Source: Zanthoxylum bungeanum (lineage: Eukaryota; Streptophyta; Magnoliopsida; Sapindales; Rutaceae). From it: a stretch of DNA of 64,000 bases. A model generated the notes under the pieces. It did no database searches and was not told the DNA's origin. It saw only the letters and a program-made list of their open reading frames with translations. The DNA lies in NCBI GenBank assembly GCA_019454045.1, contig SKCR01031857.1, positions 32,269 to 96,268 on the forward strand, read 5' to 3'. How positions within the stretch are numbered: the first letter of the stretch is position 1; the number at the start of each line of letters is the position of its first letter. Below, one piece after another: positions 29,544-59,312 of this stretch. Both the position numbers and the translations under genes were made by a program.

Positions 29544-30844
29544 ATGAGTGAATCAGATATTGAGGTATCCCGTATGGATCAGTTGGAAAACGGTCTCGCC
29601 AAGGTCACTGAACAATTGCAAGCCTTGACTACTGCCATGACAAAATGGCTGTGCCCCGTGCTGGGGGAAATTCTGAGAATGTGAGGCGTGAGGAGCCTCC
29701 GAATGGGTTGGGGGATGATATCCCCACTTTTGATGATGACATGGCAGAGTATGCAACAGGTAAAATGGTTGGGTCTCAGGTAGAATTTCAGAAGCTTCGG
29801 GATCAGGTTGAGTCAGTTACCCGCAAGATGAGGGGTAAACATGAAGAGTTGTTAGACTATGAGGCAATGACCTTCGGAGAACAGCTGCCAGCTCAGTTTA
29901 AAATGCCCGACATGGCCTTGTTTAATGGGAATGGAGACCCGAGGGTCCATCTGCAGTAATATGTCTCAGTCATGAGTTCAATGGGCCTATCACAGCGCCA
30001 AGTCCAAAAGATGTTTGGGATGTCACTCGAGGGGGCACATGTGGTTTGGTATCATAGCCTTAAGAAGAAGGTTAAGGAAGATTGGAAGGAACTAGCTGAT
30101 GCTTTTCTGAAACAGTATGTTACAGACTTAGAGATTGATTTGTCACTTCGTGATTTGGAGAACACTGAGCAGAAGCCAGAAGAAAGCTTCAAGGAGTATG
30201 TAGACCGCTGGAGAAGCCAGCTTCTGAAAATGCACACTCGGCCCTCTGAGAAGGACCAGATTAAAATGATTATCAAGGGCACTAAGCCCTCGATCTATGG
30301 CAAGTTGAGGAGGATGACTTCAATGATTGCGGATTTCCAATAGTTGAGGGAAACTGTCATGGATATTGAGGAAGAAGAGGCTGAAAACAGAAAATTTTAT
30401 GGCCAGAATAGAAGGAATTTTGGGGGACATCTCGAAGCCAAGAGTGCTGAGGTCACTGCCATCAGGAACAGACGTTTCTCCAACTTGGGTAGACCTCTAT
30501 CTAAGGTGCTTGAGAAGTTGAAGGGACAAGGACTCCTAAAACCCTTAGAGCCTAAACCACTTCCAGATCCTATACCACCCAACCTTGACCTAAGCCTATA
30601 TTGTCACTTCCATCAGAGGAGAGGCCACGAAACTGACAATTGCACCCGCCTTAGGCATGAAGTCCAAAACCTCATCGATGCTCACAAAATACCTGACCCA
30701 GAAAGAGAACAACCCAACGCACACAGAAATCCCCTACCCAACTATATGATCAACTCTGGCCTACCCGAAACCCTTGTCCTCCAAACTCTCAACCACTCAG
30801 TTTCATTCATAGGAATAGGGGATGACAACGGTGGAGAACCATAG
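29544..30844 (+). pseudogene. Element C gag (Ty3/gypsy, Tat type), broken
   Basis: This encodes the capsid/nucleocapsid protein that packages element RNA. ATG at 29544 opens MSESDIEV in one frame. Near 29640 the reading shifts to the frame that continues from 29645 to 30844. FKMPDMALFNGNGDPRVHL (about 29899) is the conserved start of the Retrotrans_gag domain, and ESFKEYVDRWRSQ (about 30181) lies in its C-terminal part. A CHFHQRRGHETDNC stretch (about 30601-30642) is the modified zinc-finger-like motif of Tat elements. Two in-frame stops (TAA at about 29957, TAG at about 30341) and the shift inactivate it. Pol, which should follow, is absent. Confidence 0.85.
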
Positions 30845-50184: not shown

Positions 50185-50434
50185 TTAAAAGCCTTTATTA
50201 CATAAAGAAGAAATTGAAATGATGTTCTTTACTTGAGAAGGTACATAAACACAATCTTCTAAGTCTAAAACTAAACCATTCGGTAAAACTAATGAATAAG
50301 TCCTCACGCACAATGCAGCCAGTTTTGCTCCATTACCCATCCGTAAGTCAACCTCCCCATGACGGAGTCTCCTACTGTTTCTCAGGCCCTGCACATTATT
50401 ACACAAGTGAGTCCCACAACCGGTGTCAAACACC
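50185..50434 (-). pseudogene. Copia E protease, downstream half
   Basis: FDTGCGTHLCNNVQGLRNSR contains the retropepsin DTG active site. Further on come EVDLRMGNGAKLAAL and LPNGLVLDLEDCVYVPSQVK, typical of copia protease. The residues expected just upstream (STWVL) are found 8 kb away, at 58424 onward. Element F therefore inserted between the WV and DTG codons. Confidence 0.85.
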
Positions 50435-52618
50435 TGATGGGTGGAAAATATATCAATATTTACCGCCCATTTTACTTAATATTTTATTTAGTTTCTCGGG
50501 TTTGATGAACGTTTTGATGTGTTTTAGTTTATTTTGCAGATAAAATAATATTGGGACTTAATGAAATCATTTAGGACGAAATATGGGTCAAATAAGGGCC
50601 AAAATTGGACTTGACATATTAATTTTGGAGATTGGAAACATGAAAGGGCGTTTTAACGAAGTGCAGTTTTCGAAATTCCAATTTTGTGCATCTGTCGTAA
50701 TTTGGGCATAATATTTTACTCCGATATCGGATTGAGCTGATTCAAGTTCCAGATTAAAGAACACTCAAAGATCTAAAGCTTTGAAAGAAAAAATAATTTC
50801 GAATTCTGAAGATTTCATGCCCGAAATTGATGAACCATCCAGAAGTGTGTTGTGTGTAATTATTAAAGTCACTTTCAATCATTTTCAAAGAAAAAAATAA
50901 ATTAATAAATAAATAATAAAAATTATCAAATCATCACCAAACATGATAAGAGATTAGTGGAGCAATTAATAATGGATTTGGTGGAGCAATTAGTAGAGCA
51001 ATTAGTGGAACAATTAATAATTGATTTGGTGGATGATTTGATGGAGGCAAAATTTTGCCTATAAATACCAAGCCATTTCATTTGTAAAATTCATACTTTC
51101 TTCTAAGGAATTCCTTAAGAATACTAAGAAGATTGTATCTTGTTTGTTTATTTATAGCTTTTAGTAATTAATTTCCGCTTTCAGGCTTTCTTTTCTTTAC
51201 TTTTCAGTTTTTACTTTCCGCAATTTACTTTTACTCACAGTACTTTTTTTCTTTAATTTTTAGTTTTTACTTTTCAGTAATGAGGAGGTAACTCCCCTTT
51301 GCTGGGGTAAAAGGTAAAAATTTTATTACTAATATTTAGATTAATCTCCCTTAATTATAATATATAAACTACTTAAAACCTGACTTAATGAGGATACCGC
51401 CATATTGGTCGGTTGGTAATTATTTAAATTGGTTTTAACCTGACTAAACTGGATACCGCCTGATTTGTCGGTTGGTAATTAATTATTAATTTGACTTAAT
51501 TTGGATACCGCCTATATGGCTGGTTGGTAATTATCATGCAAAGTTAATATATTATATTAAGGGAGATATCTAAAATAGAAGTAATAAAAGTGGATCCTTT
51601 TACCTGAGCATTTTCTTTTATTGTACTTTTACTTTATTTAATTTTCAACAATTTACTTTTCAGCAATTTACTTTTCAGCAATTTACTTTTCAGCATTTAC
51701 TTTTCAGTAATTTACTTTTCAGCATTTACTTTTTCAGCATTTAATTTTCAGTATTTAATTTCAGCATTTACTTTCCGTCATTTACTTTTTCAGCAATTTA
51801 CTTTTCAGCTTTTACTTTATGTCTTTTACTTTTTCAGCATTTTTATTTTATGTCTTTTACTTTTAGTTTTTACTAGCCCTAGTTATGTGTTAGTTATCTG
51901 GGGTTGTGATGAATTCTAATATCATCGATTTATAATGGGTTATTTTATAGTTTGGGTAAGTTAAAGGTTTACTTATTAAGTCTTAAGCTTAATGCTTCTT
52001 GTTGTCTGATCATCAATAAGATTGATGTGGTAAATCTAAAATGAACTAGATATAGGGATTTTAGGTTTCAGCCTTAGACTTAATAGCCCATGATCTTCCT
52101 TGAGGATAGATAACCCTTTAATAGATTTCCTTACAGGATAGACATATACCTGTTGGGCGGGGGTAGCCATAATTGGAACTTAAACTTAATGAATCCAGAT
52201 AATTTGGTTGACATAGATATATGGTTTAATTGAGTTAAACTGGGTATTTGCATCTGACCATCGACAGAGGCTTTTGCATAATTTCGTGTTCCAGGTTAGT
52301 GAACCGATTTATTACACAAACATAAAATAATCACTTCATCTTTTGAAAGATATTAGAATGATTCACAATCCTAGATCTTTGTGTCTTTTGTTATTTTCCT
52401 TAGTATTTTCTTTTGTTTATTTTATTTATTTTAATTAAGGAAAACCACATTCAACCAATCAAACAATCATTCTCTTCTCCATTTAATTAGATATTTGTAA
52501 ATAAATATATTCAATAATTAATAACAATAGTAGGAATTAAGTCCTCGTGGGATCGATATTTTTATACTACTTGACCGATACGTGCGCTTGCGTTATACGT
52601 GTGTGTTTACGCCGGTCA
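50435..52618 (+). repeat. Element F 5' LTR
   Basis: It starts TGATGGGTGGAAAATATATC and ends GCCGGTCA. A TATA-like CTATAAATACC is at about 51059. It contains three copies of GGATACCGCC..GGTTGGTAATTA (about 51390-51535) and an array of ATTTACTTTTCAGCA words (51640-51870). Confidence 0.92.
51230..51870 (+). repeat. Pyrimidine-rich TTTACTTTTCAGCA array in the F LTR
   Basis: Around twenty degenerate copies of a 14-17-bp unit (TTTACTTTTCAGCAA) occur, most densely at 51650-51800. The matching array in the 3' LTR is at 57050-57670 with slightly different copy number. Confidence 0.85.
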
Positions 52619-52624
52619 AGTTTT

Positions 52625-52642
52625 TGGCGCCGTTGCCAGGGA
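52625..52642 (+). other. Primer-binding site of element F (tRNA-Asp type)
   Basis: TGGCGCCGTTGCCAGGGA starts seven bases after the LTR. It is the site typical of Athila elements, complementary to a tRNA-Asp end. Confidence 0.85.
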
Positions 52643-52753
52643 CTTATTTTTCTTGAGTTATTAATTTTGAAGCTATCTAATTTACTTGTATCTAATTTTC
52701 TTTATTTTTATCCGTAATTTTTATTTCTTTCTTTTATTTCAGGTGGTTGAAAA

Positions 52754-52927
52754 ATGGAACTATATTGGGAGATTGAAAGATTACGAGCCTTACAAGAAGA
52801 TACACCCCACATCTGGGAGCAACAGTCCGGTTTTCTGAAGCCTGTTGCCCAACCCAACGACTATCACTGGATGCCAGAACCAAGCAATACTACATTTGCT
52901 CAACAGAACGTAATGGGGGAGATGTGA
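52754..52927 (+). pseudogene. Element F gag, 5' remnant
   Basis: ATG at 52754 opens MELYWEIERLRALQEDTPHI and runs 57 codons to TGA at 52925. The next frame (52926 onward) continues with the gag knuckle region, so a frameshift or internal deletion separates them. Most of the Athila gag (normally several hundred codons) is absent. Confidence 0.6.
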
Positions 52928-54035
52928 CATATGTAATGGTAACCACCCGAGAGATTATTGCGAGTACAACTACAATCCAGGGTGGCAGAGCTATCAAAAT
53001 CCTTCATGGTACGAAGAACCATCACATTTTCCATCTTATCCACCATCCTACAATGATTTTCATCAACAATCAGAACAATCAGAAGAAGATCAGATGATTG
53101 ACATGCTCAAAGATATTTTCAAGAAACGAGATGAAAAGTTGGATACAATGCTTGAAACATTCTAGAATCAACTCGAAAGTATTCAGAGTCAAACAGAATC
53201 CATACAGAGAATAACAGATCAGATCAGACAATTAATAGAAAACCAGAACTTCATACCTCAAGAAGCATTTTTAGATGACACTGATGAAGCCTTCGAGTAC
53301 CCAGAGATCCATAATGACACCTTAACAGAGGAGGAGGCTGAGCAGTATCAACAACCAGAGGTATCAGTTCAGGAGCCCGAACCGGCAAAGTCTCGATTTG
53401 ATTTTTATTATTCTGACTCTGACGAGGATGAAGCTGATCTATTTGTACCAACTGTACCAACAACGGAGGATCAAACTTTCAATCCTCAAAATGAAGATCT
53501 TGGAGCATGCTTTTCCATGATGTTTGATGAAGATCTACCTGAACCATCCATTCCAGTCGTATCAGAGGATAAAAATCTAATGTCAGAAACATCTTTACAT
53601 CCTCAGGCAGATACTTATGGAGCATGTATTTCACATATGACGGATAAAGAATTGAATACAGAAATTTTAAAATTCATCTGTGAAGAAAAGGTGGAGCAAG
53701 AAGTAGAGCAAATGGAGGAGCAATTGTCAGAAAAAATTGAAGATCCAGTGAATTCAGGCGAAACATCACTGTTTTGGGGAGCACAATTTAGAGATATCGC
53801 CCAAAAGCTTGACATAATGGAACTTACATTCCAAGTCAAGCACCATACGAGACCTCATGATTTTCTTTCTTTCTTTTCAGGAACCAATGTAGCAACAAAG
53901 ATTAAAAAGGTTTCACGAGCACTGAATGAGACAAAACTCTTTTTATCACTTTACCGTTGGAAGAGACCTTTCAAAAGCAACGCTCATGAGATTGTCTTTA
54001 ATCGGACATCCAAAACAACGCTAAAACCTCATTGA
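52926..54035 (+). pseudogene. Element F gag C-terminus fused to a frame of unknown function
   Basis: One frame is open for 369 codons apart from a single TAG at 53163. It starts with CNGNHPRDYCEYNYNPGWQS, which matches the C-terminal 'C..H...C...NPGW' region of Athila Gag (a variant zinc knuckle). A Gln/Glu-rich, probably coiled-coil stretch follows (53040-53250), then an acidic segment (FYYSDSDEDEADLF at about 53400). The last 170 codons (from MMFDEDLPEPS, 53517) include EKVEQEVEQMEEQLSEKIED and the block FWGAQFRDIAQKLDIMELTF, then LSLYRWKRPFKSNAHEIVF. I do not recognise this last part. The frame ends at TGA 54033, 257 bp before the LOG-like ATG. Confidence 0.6.
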
Positions 54036-54292: not shown

Positions 54293-54946
54293 ATGGAAGC
54301 CACTTCAAGAAGACGAGTTGAAAATATCTGTCTGTTTTGCGGTAGTAGTGTTGGTGTTAAGCCACAATACATAGAAGCAGCACATGAATTGGGTCGAGTC
54401 TTAGCTGCAAGGAATATGCACTTAATATATGGCGGAGGCAATCTTGGACTAATGGGGATCGTTTCAAAGGCTGTACAGGAGGGAGGCAGTCACGTTTTGG
54501 GAATCATCCCAAAACCCTTGACAGAGGCAAATCTTATTAGATCATCAAACGGAGAGGAACTGATCGTGCCAGGTATGTCTGAACGATTGGTAGAAATGAT
54601 TAATCGTGCTGATGCTTTTATTGCTTTGCCAGGTGGCTTGGGTACATTGGAGGAAATTTTTATAGTGCTATCTTGGGCGAACCTGAACATACACCAGAAA
54701 TCGCTTGGACTATACAACGTTGAAGGATTTTATGATTTTATTTGTGTGTTTCTTGATGATGCCCGGAGAAATGGGTTCGGGTCAAAACCTTTAAAAGAAC
54801 TCCTCTTCACTGCCATAACTGCTCCAAATCTAATTGACCAAATCTTAACCTATGAACCACAAATTGACCCTATCATTTCAAAGATAAATTGGTCTGAGGA
54901 AGATCGTGGTAAGAGGCGTCGGATTAATCTGGATCTTAACCTTTAA
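54293..54946 (+). CDS. LOG-like: LOG-like cytokinin riboside 5'-monophosphate phosphoribohydrolase, captured in element F
   Basis: A 217-codon ORF without stops or introns. LOG enzymes release active free-base cytokinin and ribose 5-phosphate from cytokinin nucleotides, in cytosol and nucleus. Visible motifs are FCGSS (15-19), YGGGNLGLMG (46-55), SERLVEM (96-102) and PGGLGTLEE (113-121), the family's PGGxGTxxE signature with its catalytic Glu. The conserved Arg is kept at 98, but the Lys usually next to it is Leu. Length equals that of ordinary plant LOGs. The C-terminus differs: GKRRR (206-210), a nuclear-signal-like patch, then LDLNL (213-217), an EAR-type LxLxL tail. ATG context is good (AAAAATGG). 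Plant LOG genes have several introns, so this copy was probably captured via RNA. It takes the place of the Athila third ORF. Whether it is expressed or active is unknown. Confidence 0.92.
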   Translation: MEATSRRRVENICLFCGSSVGVKPQYIEAAHELGRVLAARNMHLIYGGGNLGLMGIVSKAVQEGGSHVLGIIPKPLTEANLIRSSNGEELIVPGMSERLVEMINRADAFIALPGGLGTLEEIFIVLSWANLNIHQKSLGLYNVEGFYDFICVFLDDARRNGFGSKPLKELLFTAITAPNLIDQILTYEPQIDPIISKINWSEEDRGKRRRINLDLNL

Positions 54947-55480
54947 TTTCCTTTAGAATTTTAGCTAACCAGGTACTATCTTCTACACTCTTCTTGTACT
55001 GTTTAAGACATTGAGGACAATGTCTCATTTAAGTTTGGGGGAGGGAATTAGTTGATCAGTACCTTGTTTTTAGTTTGTGTGTTGTTTTTATTTTTGGTCC
55101 AAAATTTTTCGAATACTACAAAAAAAATTGAAAAAGTTTCAAAAATTACAAAAATATTTTGTGTTTTTATTTTGACTAAAAATGTGAAATTGGTAAAAGA
55201 TAGCTGAGTAAGGAGTTTCCACTTCTGAGACGTATCTCAAACCTATTTCGAAACAAGTTAATTTTTGTTTATTTCATTTTAAATTATTTAATTTGTAAAT
55301 TTTCCATAAAATGGACTAAAATGGATCTTCATATGCTCAATTAGCAGATATTATCAACATACAAAGTAACATACATACATGAGTTGTAATTGAAAAGTTT
55401 ATAATATTTAGTGCTCTAGTTTAATTGGAGAAAGCATCTCAAAAAGTGATGGAGTAAAAAAAAAAAAAAGTTTGAGATCC
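54947..55480 (+). other. Element F 3' region with first purine tract
   Basis: Just after the LOG-like stop, GACATTGAGGACAATGTC (about 55008) and AAGTTTGGGGGAGGG (about 55032) form the first, internal purine tract seen in Athila-type elements. The rest is AT-rich with no gene. Confidence 0.65.
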
Positions 55481-55710
55481 GAGTTATTAAGTCTGTAAGG
55501 GTGTTTTAACACCTAGTGCCCTAAAGCCAACTGGTTTGGGAGTCACTGGCCCAAAGCTCGCTACAGGGATCAAAGATGCTGCAAAAATATATATATCTTA
55601 AGTCTGAGTAATTAAGTCCGTAGGGGTGTCTTAACACCTGGTGCCCTAAAGCCAACTGGTTTGGGAGCCATCGACCCAACACTCGCTACATAGATGGAAG
55701 ATATTGTATA
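55480..55710 (+). repeat. Tandem duplication of ~120 bp in the element F 3' region
   Basis: Two copies, at about 55484-55590 and 55604-55705, share GTGCCCTAAAGCCAACTGGT, TTTGGGAG and CTCGCTACA, with perhaps 15% difference. The first copy begins GAGTTATTAAGTCTGTAAGG. Inverted GTGTTTTAACACC within each copy could form a hairpin. Confidence 0.8.
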
Positions 55711-56261: not shown

Positions 56262-58424
56262 TGATGAGTGGAAAATATATCAATATTTACCGCCCATTTT
56301 ACTTAATATTTTGTTTAGTTTCTCGGGTTTGATGAACGTTTTGATGTGTTTTAGTTTATTTTGCAGATATAATAATATTGGGACTTAATGAAATCATTTA
56401 GGACGAAATATGGGTCAAATAAGGGCAAAAATTGGACTTGACATATTAATTTTGGAGATTGGAAACTTGAAATGGCGTTTTAACGAAGTGCAGTTTTGGA
56501 AATTCCAGTTTTGTGCATCTGTCGTAATTTGGGCATAACCTTTTACTCCGATATCGGATTGAGCTGATTCAAGTTTCATATTAAAGAAGACTCAAAGATC
56601 TACAGCTTTTAAAGACAAAATAATTTCGAATTCTGAAGATTTCATGCCCGAAATGGATGAACCATCCAGAAGTGTGTTGTGTGTAATTATTAAAGTCACT
56701 TTCAATCATTTTCAAAGCAAAAAATAAATTAATAAATAAATAATAAAAATTATCAAATCATCACCAAACATGATAAGAGATTAGTGGAGCAATTAATAAT
56801 GGATTTGGTGGAGCAATTAATAATTGATTTGGTAGATGATCTGATGGAGGCAAAATTTTGCTTATAAATACCAAGCCATTTCATTTGTAAAATTCATTCT
56901 TTCTTCAAAGGAATTCCTTAAGAATACTAAGAAGATTGTATCTTATTTGTTTATTTATAGCTTTTAGTAATTAATTTCCGCTTTCGCTCTTTCTTTTCTT
57001 TACTTTTCAGTTTTTACTTTCCGCAATTTACTTTTACGCACAGTACTTTTCTTTCTTTAATTTTCAGTTTTTACTTTTCAGTAATGAGGAGAATGAGGAG
57101 GTAACTCCCCTTTGCTGGGGTAAAAGATAAAACTTTTATTACTAATATTTAGATTAATCTCCCTTAATTATAATATATAAACTAGTTAAAACCTGACTTA
57201 ACAAGGATACCGCCATATTGGTCGGTTGGTAATTATTTAAATTGGTTTTAACTTGACTAAACTGGATACCGCCTGATTGGTCGGTTGGTAATTAATTATT
57301 AATTTGACTTAATCTGGATACCGCCTATATGGATGGTTGGTAATTATCATGCAAAGTTAATATATTATATTAAGGGAGATATCTAAAATAGAAGTAATAA
57401 AAATGGATCCTTTTACTTGAGCATTTTCTTTTATTGTACTTTTACTTTATTTAATTTTCAGCAATTTACTTTTCAGCAATTTACTTTTCAGCAATTTACT
57501 TTCAGCATTTACTTTTCAGTAATTTACTTTCAGCATTTACTTTCAGCATTTAATTTTCAGTATTTAATTTCAGCATTTACTTTCCGTCATTTACTTTTCA
57601 GCAATTTACTTTTCAGCTTTTACTTTATGTCTTTTACTTTTTAGCATTTTTATTTTATGTCTTTTACTTTAAGTTTTTACTAGCCCTAGTTATGTGTTAG
57701 TTATCTGGGGTTGTGATGAATTCTATTATCACCAGTTTATAATGGGTTATTTTATAGTTTGGGTAAGTTAAAGGTTTACTTATTAAGTCTATACTTAATT
57801 CTTCTTGTTGTCTGATCACCAATAAGATTGATGTGGTAAATCTAAAATGAACTAGACATAGGGATTTTAGGTTTCAGCCTTAGACTTAATAGCCCATGAT
57901 CTTCCTTGAGGATAGATAACCCTTTAATAGATTTCCTTACAGGATAAACATGTACCTATCGGGCGGGGGTAGCCATAATTGGAACTTAAACTTAATGAAT
58001 CCAGATAATTTGGTTGACATAGATATATGGTTCAATTGGGTTAAACTGGGTATTTGCGTCTGACCATCGACAGAGGCTTTTGCATAATTTTGTGTTCCAG
58101 GTTAGTAAACCGATTTATTACACAAACATAAAATTATCACTTCATCTTTTGAAAGATATTAGAATGATTCACAACCCTAGATCTTTGTGTCTTTTGTTAT
58201 TTTCCTTAGTATTTTCTTTTGTTTATTTTATTTATTTTAATTAAGGAAAATCACATTCAACCAATCAAACAATCATTCTCTTCTCCATTTAATTAGATAT
58301 TTGTAAATAAATATATTCAAGAATTAATAACAACAGTAGGAATTAAGTCCTCGTGGGATCGATATTTTTATACTACTTGAACGATACGTGCGCTTGCGTT
58401 ATACGTGTGTGTTTACCCCGGTCA
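56262..58424 (+). repeat. Element F 3' LTR
   Basis: It starts TGATGAGTGGAAAATATATC and ends CCCCGGTCA. It lacks one GTGGAGCAATTAG-like repeat copy present in the 5' LTR (about 50985-51010). The 75-codon ORF at 57417-57644 (FQQFTFQQFTF) is a translation of the pyrimidine-rich array. Confidence 0.92.
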
Positions 58425-59312
58425 GCACCCAAGTAGAAGGTTCAGAGTTTTGAGAATATAGTTCAATCATATACAACATACCTGAAGCATTAGGCTTATT
58501 AGCCTCTTGGGCTTCCCTAGCTTCCTTGGTTTTCAAGGATCTGCAGTCTTTCTTCCAATGACCCTTATTTCCACAAAAGAAACATTTCCCCTTTTCATTT
58601 TTCTTCTCCACCTTACCATTGGGCTTTAGCTGATCTGGAGCCTTGGCCTTGCCCTTATTTTTCTTTGGGCCTCGTGGCTTCAGGTCCGTACTTGTAAGCA
58701 TGACATAGGTTTTAAGCTCCGATTTCAAGTCATTCTATGCTTGCTTTATCAGATTGTGCAATTCTGCTAAAGTAGCTTCTTTATCAGACAGATGAAACTA
58801 CATAATAAAGTTAGAGAAGTCTTTTGTTAAGGACTGAAGAATTAGATCGCGACCTATCTCATGATCCATGATGAACCCGAGGTTGGCCAATTTTTCAATT
58901 TGGCCAATCATCTTAAGCACATGTCAACTAACAGATCATTCCTTATACCTTGTTTGGAATAAGGCACATGACACTTGGAATCTCACGGTATGAACGGAAG
59001 TTGCATACAACTCCTTCAAGTGAAAGATGATGGTTTGAGCATCCATATCTTCGTGAGCTTTCTGAAGTTCGTCCGACATAGAGCCAAGCATTATGCAAAC
59101 TGCTTGCTCATCATCATCGACATGTTTCTTCCAAGCATCAAATGTATTTTGGTCACATCTTCTGCGGGTTCATTGGGAAATGGTCTTTCAAGAACATATA
59201 AAATATTTTCTTGTCGTAAGACAATTTTAAGGTTTCTAAACCAGTCATTATAGTTGTCCCCTTTGAGCTTATGCTCATCAAGGATGGAATGAAGTGATAC
59301 TCTATTTTCCAT
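58425..59312 (-). pseudogene. Copia E gag and protease N-terminus
   Basis: ATG at 59312 opens MENRVSLHSILDEHKLKGDN and then YNDWFRNLKIVLRQENILYV, the typical start of Ty1/copia Gag. The frame breaks near 59091. From 58728 a second open stretch contains the zinc knuckle CFFCGNKGHWKKDC (CCHC intact, 58584-58543). It runs to SEPSTWV at about 58430, where element F begins. The protease active site continues at 50434. Stops and shifts between 59091 and 58728 inactivate it. Confidence 0.88.

What the first reader, a model, noticed from the sequence alone, without database searches (positions are those of the whole stretch)
54293..54946. Intact, intronless LOG-type cytokinin-activating gene carried by an Athila-like retrotransposon
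The 217-codon ORF keeps the LOG signatures (FCGSS, YGGGNLGLMG, PGGLGTLEE, catalytic Glu and Arg) and has no stop or frameshift, whereas every gag/pol region around it is broken. It lies between a bona fide Athila primer-binding site/gag remnant and the 3' purine tract, inside LTRs and a target duplication, so it is part of the element. Its position corresponds to the third (env-like) ORF of Athila. A retroelement that carries a hormone-activation gene could alter local cytokinin pools or be a route for gene duplication. Known: LOG enzymes activate cytokinin nucleotides, and plant LOG genes have introns. Inferred: capture through RNA, and selection keeping the frame open.
Basis: partly seen in the sequence, partly recalled or inferred. 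Interest (0 to 1): 0.92.

Follow-up and report, generated by a model that had tools for sequence, protein, structure and literature searches.

The report
LOG gene carried by plant retrotransposons
A family of plant jumping genes carries an intact copy of a hormone-activating type of gene that natural selection has kept, often next to a virus-like gene, so it looks like a lasting part of the element rather than a chance passenger.

Summary
ORF 54293-54946 encodes a 217-aa protein of type-I LOG fold inside an LTR element (LTRs 50435-52618 and 56262-58424, 96.9% identical) inserted in a Copia element. The gene is not a one-off: the host genome (3.96 Gb) shows at least 210 places with it, and 20 of 20 fetched with flanks have LTRs of this family on at least one side. 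In 20 copies chosen by another gene, dN/dS is 0.24. Host LOG loci have split exons, so capture probably went through RNA. LOG-like genes in Gypsy elements were already in print (Citrus, Populus): a known kind. This copy itself need not be under selection (neutral chance of an intact frame 0.16-0.40; 26 of 40 sampled copies broken). Not found in print by my searches: (i) element-type LOGs form one group apart from host LOG7; (ii) a C-terminal basic plus LxLxL (EAR-like) tail (119 and 99 of 125 rows; 0 of 31 host-type rows); (iii) a longer class with LOG about 260 nt after an ORF matching carlavirus nucleic-acid-binding families (20 of 20 loci); the pair recurs in an Orobanche gene model and, by locus tags, in Xanthoceras. 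Enzyme activity and the tail's role are untested.

The parts
54293..54946 (+). LOG-type ORF (217 aa), intronless
   Evidence: model and fold match
54584..54586 (+). codon of conserved Arg98 (motif GMSER)
   Evidence: alignment; R in 75 of 81 genome copies, stop in 4, Q in 2
54629..54655 (+). PGGLGTLEE motif (residues 113-121)
   Evidence: E120 in 81 of 81, E121 in 80 of 81 copies
54908..54943 (+). C-terminal tail GKRRRINLDLNL: basic stretch plus LxLxL (EAR-like), not in host-type LOG7 rows
   Evidence: residues 204-217 under pLDDT 50 in the model
50435..52618 (+). 5' LTR (TG...CA), 2184 bp
56262..58424 (+). 3' LTR (TG...CA), 2163 bp
50430..50434 (.). target-site duplication, 5' copy (ACACC)
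58425..58429 (.). target-site duplication, 3' copy (GCACC, one difference)
52625..52643 (+). primer-binding-site-like TGGCGCCGTTGCCAGGGAC
   Evidence: that this fits Athila/Tat elements is recalled
52754..54035 (+). broken gag-like ORF of the short class (zinc-knuckle-like CDICNGNH...C), one frame change and one TAG
   Evidence: the corresponding frame is open over 450 codons in copy L013
56247..56261 (+). purine-rich stretch before the 3' LTR (PPT-like)

Best explanation
The ORF is a LOG gene that belongs to an abundant, recently active family of Athila-like LTR elements. Shown: LTR-flanked copies, no introns, LOG fold, purifying selection on the family, one group of element-type LOGs apart from host LOG7, a C-terminal tail that host LOG7 lacks and, in the long class, linkage to an ORF of the carlavirus nucleic-acid-binding type. 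Inferred: the gene came once from a spliced LOG7-like mRNA in an ancestral element and was passed on with it, and these copies are moved in trans. Inferred mechanism (about 45%): the protein still hydrolyses cytokinin ribotides, with its catalytic Arg and Glu kept; the basic tail takes it to the nucleus; and the element gains because cells that make it stay in a dividing state in which new copies reach the germ line. The LxLxL tail may add recruitment of TOPLESS-type co-repressors. The window copy itself is one inserted copy, probably drifting.
For: LTRs of this family at 20 of 20 fetched copies, both sides in 16. LOG at 92.7-94.8% nt where matching LTR pieces show 71-94% (these copies were chosen by LOG similarity). 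Differences by codon position 0.057/0.024/0.098 and dN/dS 0.242 in 20 copies chosen by the neighbouring ORF; frames +1 and +2 of the same alignment give 0.59 and 2.05. Codon-model omega 0.171 on 34 intact copies (chosen by LOG similarity). 43 picked element-type LOGs on one side of a branch (100/100) from 25 host LOG7-like proteins and two Arabidopsis LOGs; the same split on all 156 listed rows of 200-270 aa, 125 against 31. Basic tail 119 of 125 against 0 of 31, LxLxL 99 of 125 against 0 of 31. E120 in 81 of 81 copies, R98 in 75 of 81. Host LOG exons in separate blocks. LTR K2P down to 0.0015, median 0.0098 in 16 copies.
Against: The HxRKxxM motif of host LOG7 (31 of 31 rows; kept in only 13 of 125 others) reads SERLVEM here, so substrate or activity may have changed. 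No expression, localisation or enzyme data. Direct LTR context was seen in one genome only. The stem of the group is long (0.78) and its place next to Asteraceae LOG7 may be long-branch attraction. Most sampled copies are broken (26 of 40, 14 of 20). A benefit to the element is not shown.
Confidence: 0.7

Rival explanations
1. The protein no longer acts as an enzyme.
For: NLDLNL tail in 74 of 81 copies of this genome; HxRK mostly lost in the element-type rows, most of which have the tail (kept in 13 of 125); EAR consensus LxLxL or DLNx(x)P (start of the PMC9956375 abstract in the listing).
Against: Glu120/121 and Arg98 stay nearly invariant, which a mere scaffold does not need; relatives in Xanthoceras, Acer and P0035 have a basic tail without LxLxL.
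Confidence: 0.25
2. The protein serves the element's own cycle: with its basic tail it binds element RNA or cDNA or helps bring it to the nucleus, together with the neighbouring nucleic-acid-binding ORF.
For: No RT was seen in the ten copies whose open frames I read (six, four), yet LOG and the neighbour ORF have dN/dS well under 1 (0.242; 0.285).
Against: The LOG active-site residues are kept; the short class, the window's, has LOG without the neighbour ORF.
Confidence: 0.2
3. Chance, neutral passenger: the gene was caught by accident and copied along.
For: This copy's intact frame is compatible with neutrality (0.16-0.40); 26 of 40 and 14 of 20 sampled copies are broken.
Against: dN/dS 0.235-0.242 in copies not chosen for the tested part, third-position excess, wrong-frame readings 0.59-2.05; relatives named from several eudicot families keep motifs and length.
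Confidence: 0.04

Closest known systems
LOG/YgdH-bearing Gypsy elements of Citrus and Populus (PMC9289625, section 12 read; it cites Steinbauerova et al. 2011, not held, whose abstract I recall as naming two Athila-like elements with similarity to LOGL4)
   Same: LOG domain inside Ty3/Gypsy LTR elements
   Different: That section mentions no partner ORF, C-terminal tail, selection test or single origin of the LOGs; the 2011 paper and the supplements were not seen
Host LOG7 cytokinin riboside 5'-monophosphate phosphoribohydrolases
   Same: PGGxGTxEE, Arg and Glu; nearest host rows in the tree
   Different: Host-type rows keep HxRKxxM (31 of 31) and have no basic or LxLxL tail (0 of 31). Introns were seen in four LOG loci of this genome that match AtLOG3, not in LOG7 itself
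AlkB-bearing Gypsy elements of Phalaenopsis (PMC9289625, section 12)
   Same: A captured enzyme domain kept by a Gypsy family
   Different: Another enzyme; found there in two orchid species only
Bs1 of maize and other gene-transducing LTR elements (PMC7264820, part 1 of 3 of the text read)
   Same: Host coding sequence carried in sense between LTRs
   Different: There described as one or a few copies; here at least 210 places, with dN/dS about 0.24
Carlavirus cysteine-rich nucleic-acid-binding protein (passages of PMC8839810), for the neighbour ORF of the long class
   Same: Pfam PF05515 and PF01623 above cut-off; basic stretch directly before a four-cysteine cluster
   Different: Cysteine spacing C-X2-C-X4-C-X3-C here, C-X2-C-X12-C-X4-C in the virus protein described; carried by an LTR element

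Membership tests
Type-I LOG phosphoribohydrolase | PGGxGTxxE motif with catalytic Glu | tested here: met
Type-I LOG phosphoribohydrolase | conserved Arg before the motif | tested here: met
   R98, (its catalytic role is recalled)
Type-I LOG phosphoribohydrolase | HxRKxxM motif as in host LOG7 | tested here: not met
   SERLVEM in the window; 31 of 31 host-type rows have it, 13 of 125 others
Type-I LOG phosphoribohydrolase | LOG fold | tested here: met
Type-I LOG phosphoribohydrolase | hydrolysis of cytokinin ribotides | not testable with these tools
   needs an enzyme assay
LTR retrotransposon | paired TG...CA LTRs, target duplication, PBS and PPT | tested here: met
   the duplication differs at one of 5 bases
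LTR retrotransposon | further LTR-flanked copies | tested here: met
Athila lineage | place of reverse transcriptase in the Athila clade | not testable with these tools
   no RT seen in the window element or in the ten copies whose open frames I read
Athila lineage | PBS, gag with zinc knuckle, extra ORF in the 3' part | tested here: inconclusive
   that these mark Athila is recalled
Carlavirus-type nucleic-acid-binding protein (neighbour ORF of the long class) | Pfam PF05515 / PF01623 above gathering score | tested here: met
   30.2 and 27.8 bits against 23 and 20.9; 37 and 36 of 39 relatives at E 0.01
Carlavirus-type nucleic-acid-binding protein (neighbour ORF of the long class) | C-X2-C-X12-C-X4-C spacing | tested here: not met
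   C-X2-C-X4-C-X3-C in L028 (viral spacing from PMC8839810)
EAR-motif protein | LxLxL or DLNxxP | tested here: met
   LDLNL at the C-terminus
EAR-motif protein | binding to TOPLESS and repression | not testable with these tools
   needs a binding assay

The most novel reading that the evidence does not exclude
A widespread eudicot LTR-element lineage carries a two-gene set that acts on its host: a nuclear, EAR-tailed cytokinin-activating enzyme captured once from LOG7, and a nucleic-acid-binding protein related to the carlavirus silencing-suppressor type. Together they hold host cells in a dividing, weakly silenced state and so favour new germ-line copies.
Probability: 0.22. Interest if true: 0.93.

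Novelty: new variant of a known kind. Interest (0 to 1): 0.7.

Why it matters
Keeping an extra protein domain is described as a rare event for LTR retrotransposons (abstract of PMC9289625, listing). Here a gene of the hormone-activation type has been kept under selection, has changed (a new tail, a mostly lost motif), and in many copies is tied to a virus-type gene. If the proteins work, a repeat family present at 210 or more places could influence cytokinin pools or gene repression. Genome annotations that list such copies as ordinary host LOG genes, apparently including a 'LOGL10' of Populus that falls inside the group, would need another look.

Tried and rejected
Scans of viral contigs and genome contigs for relatives found none. 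The AF2 model of the neighbour ORF was too poor (pLDDT 59.9, pTM 0.28), so no fold search was made with it. A PDB profile search with that ORF gave nothing below E 0.28. Rejected: selection shown by the intact frame of this copy alone. Rejected as sole evidence: dN/dS from copies ranked by LOG similarity, because that choice favours low dN; two samples chosen otherwise were added. One search printed no omega figure and no result; one search did. I did not search for RT itself; the largest open frame among 150 integrase-stub places is 907 aa, which alone does not exclude broken full-length relatives. Steinbauerova et al. 2011 is not held. Paper searches for LOG in retroelements; for the carlavirus-type protein in retroelements. 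I saw their listings (capped); in them only PMC9289625 was seen to report the first, nothing the second. Tail and motif counts first made on rows I had sorted by hand into 43 and 25 were repeated on all 156 listed rows of 200-270 aa (27 of 183 dropped for length).

Full report
What is there. The ORF at 54293-54946 is as described: 217 codons, no stop, Pfam Lysine_decarbox 109.9 bits and LDcluster4 63.7 bits, closest solved chains At2g37210 (2a33) and At5g11950 (1ydh). The AF2 model from 25 aligned sequences has pLDDT 83.3 and pTM 0.81 and matches type-I LOG structures (2a33_B TMt 0.93); residues 204-217 are below pLDDT 50.

The element. LTRs 50435-52618 and 56262-58424 are 96.9% identical over 2152 aligned columns (37 transitions, 30 transversions, K2P 0.032). 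At recalled rates of 1.3e-8 or 7e-9 this is 1.2 or 2.3 million years. The element sits on the plus strand inside a Copia-like element on the minus strand; with the element and one copy of the 5-base duplication left out, the flanks read WVFDTGCGTH in an open frame (recalled as the Copia protease motif). The window copy is of a short class: PBS, a gag-like ORF (broken here; the frame is open over 450 codons in L013), LOG, a non-coding stretch, PPT-like tract.

Many copies in LTRs. The window lies in a held genome of 3.96 Gb. A search with the protein scored 150 places, the window's own included, each matched over residues 1-217 or 2-217 at 89-100%, 143 of 150 without a stop; the first look had 70149 candidates, so copy number is a lower bound. 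With the 40 other places and the 20, none of which lies on a contig of that list, 210 places were seen. The host LOG list shows near-identical pairs, so the assembly may hold both haplotypes or be polyploid, and some copies may be alleles. I fetched the next-best 20 with flanks. All 20 have LTR sequence of this family on at least one side, 16 on both. Ten are of the short class and ten of a long class. LTR K2P of the 16 runs from 0.0015 to 0.040, median 0.0098: recent activity; only two of the 16 are older than the window copy.

Selection. In 21 copies chosen by LOG similarity the median pairwise dN/dS is 0.159 (210 pairs), and a codon model on 34 intact copies gives omega 0.171. Since that choice favours low dN, two other samples were taken. 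(a) 40 copies from the list, which ranked by a C-terminal segment: 14 of 40 have an intact frame; codons 1-135, not used in the ranking, give dN/dS 0.235 over 780 pairs, 0.194 among intact and 0.254 among broken copies. (b) 20 copies chosen by the neighbour ORF: LOG is present in 20 of 20 (one, L096, matches only over 368 bases), intact in 6, dN/dS 0.242 over 190 pairs. Differences by codon position in (b) are 0.057, 0.024 and 0.098, and reading the same alignment in frames +1 and +2 gives 0.59 and 2.05 (in (a) 0.70 and 1.54). Sample (b) was chosen by copies whose neighbour ORF is well kept, so it too is not a random draw. The lineage is thus under purifying selection while single copies decay. 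For the window copy alone nothing is shown: with its LTR divergence a neutral frame survives with probability 0.16-0.40 depending on the indel rate; its dN/dS to the other 20 has median 0.285; and three of its residues occur in none of 40 others: G83R, L150I, V163G.

Origin. Canonical host LOG genes exist in the same genome: 29 of the 150 rows match an AtLOG3 fragment at 53% or more, 23 of these ending at residue 47 or 48, and the four fetched loci show exons in separate blocks. The other 121 rows, of the element type, are 38-44% identical to that fragment. In a tree of 70 proteins (43 element-type and 25 host LOG7-like rows, sorted by me from the lists, plus AtLOG3 and AtLOG8) the 43 are one side of a branch with 100/100 support and a stem of 0.78, next to LOG7; 12 of the 25 are named LOG7 or LOG7-like by their source. 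The nearest host rows are Asteraceae LOG7, which may be long-branch attraction. A quick tree of all 156 listed rows of 200-270 aa splits in the same way, 31 rows with HxRKAEM and PGGYGT against 125. The 43 include rows named from Xanthoceras, Acer, Populus, Paulownia, Reevesia and Diplodiscus; that those lie in LTR elements was not seen here, apart from the published Citrus and Populus cases and the gene pairs below.

A new tail. At least 3 K/R in 4 residues within the last 18: 119 of 125 element-type rows, 0 of 31 host-type rows; LxLxL within the last 11 residues: 99 of 125 against 0 of 31 (on the hand-sorted sets 42 of 43 and 31 of 43 against 0 of 25). In this genome NLDLNL closes 74 of 81 copies. 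The EAR motif is defined as LxLxL or DLNx(x)P (start of the PMC9956375 abstract, listing). The HxRKxxM motif is in 31 of 31 host-type and 13 of 125 other rows; the window reads SERLVEM. E120 is kept in 81 of 81, E121 in 80 and R98 in 75 copies. The 81 are the 41, of which 40 were chosen by similarity and seven have a stop, and the 40.

A virus-type partner. Long-class copies carry gag (PF03732, 84.5 bits), a protease region, a stub that I read as the integrase C-terminus, then an ORF of 182 aa, then LOG. That ORF matches PF05515 Viral_NABP (30.2 bits, cut-off 23) and PF01623 Carla_C4 (27.8, cut-off 20.9); 37 and 36 of 39 relatives match at E 0.01. It was found in 9 of 10 long-class loci, dN/dS 0.285 over 36 pairs; five of the nine have indels and two a stop (gag 0.186, protease stub 0.235; these loci were chosen by LOG). 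In the genome 150 places were scored, all covering at least residues 1-180 of 182, 146 without a stop. LOG begins about 250-271 nt after it in 20 of 20. The pair is not confined to this genome: an Orobanche minor gene model holds both domains (P0235), and in Xanthoceras the two have consecutive locus tags ACOSQ2_032186 and ACOSQ2_032187 on a contig of the same length. Two more pairs of hits share a contig length (4511 and 8723 bases), which suggests but does not prove one contig each. Described carlavirus proteins of this type have a basic stretch followed by C-X2-C-X12-C-X4-C and are called nucleic-acid-binding proteins and silencing suppressors, in one virus linked to cell proliferation (passages of PMC8839810). 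Here the spacing is C-X2-C-X4-C-X3-C, so kinship rests on the profiles, and the direction of transfer is open.

Non-autonomy. No RT was seen in the open frames of the ten copies I read. The stub query is 100% identical in 143 and 99% in 7 of 150 scored places, with open frames of at most 907 aa. So the amplified long class seems to lack RT and the integrase core and to be moved in trans; this is inferred.

What is known. PMC9289625 (section 12 read) reports YgdH/LOG domains in Gypsy consensuses of Citrus sinensis, C. clementina and, with a looser filter, Populus trichocarpa, in line with Steinbauerova et al. 2011 (not held; I recall its abstract naming two Athila-like elements similar to LOGL4). 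Its main text has no mention of 'carla', 'NABP' or 'nucleic acid binding'; supplements were not seen. A later survey counted extra ORFs of at least 250 codons (PMC6317226, passages), so a 217-codon LOG and a 182-codon partner fall below its limit. My searches showed no paper on that partner in retroelements, within an open-licence library only.

Noticed in passing
L028:3538-4083 (+) and 8 further long-class loci; not in the window: ORF matching carlavirus nucleic-acid-binding families directly upstream of LOG; 150 near-full-length places scored in the genome.
   Followed up: yes
window 54908-54943: LOG has a basic plus LxLxL (EAR-like) C-terminal tail not seen in 31 host-type rows.
   Followed up: yes
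window 55458-55707: Two tandem copies of a 125-bp unit (78% alike) in the 3' non-coding part of the element.
   Followed up: no
window 51595-51862 and 57408-57670: Both LTRs hold an array of short TTTACTTTTCAGCA-like repeats.
   Followed up: no
window 29972-30343: Another retroelement gag (PF03732, 50 bits) on the plus strand.
   Followed up: no
G000, list: Host LOG exons occur in near-identical pairs, as if the assembly held both haplotypes or a recent polyploid.
   Followed up: no
G000, list: The integrase stub of the long class is 100% identical in 143 of 150 scored places, the rest 99%: a sign of a very recent burst.
   Followed up: partly
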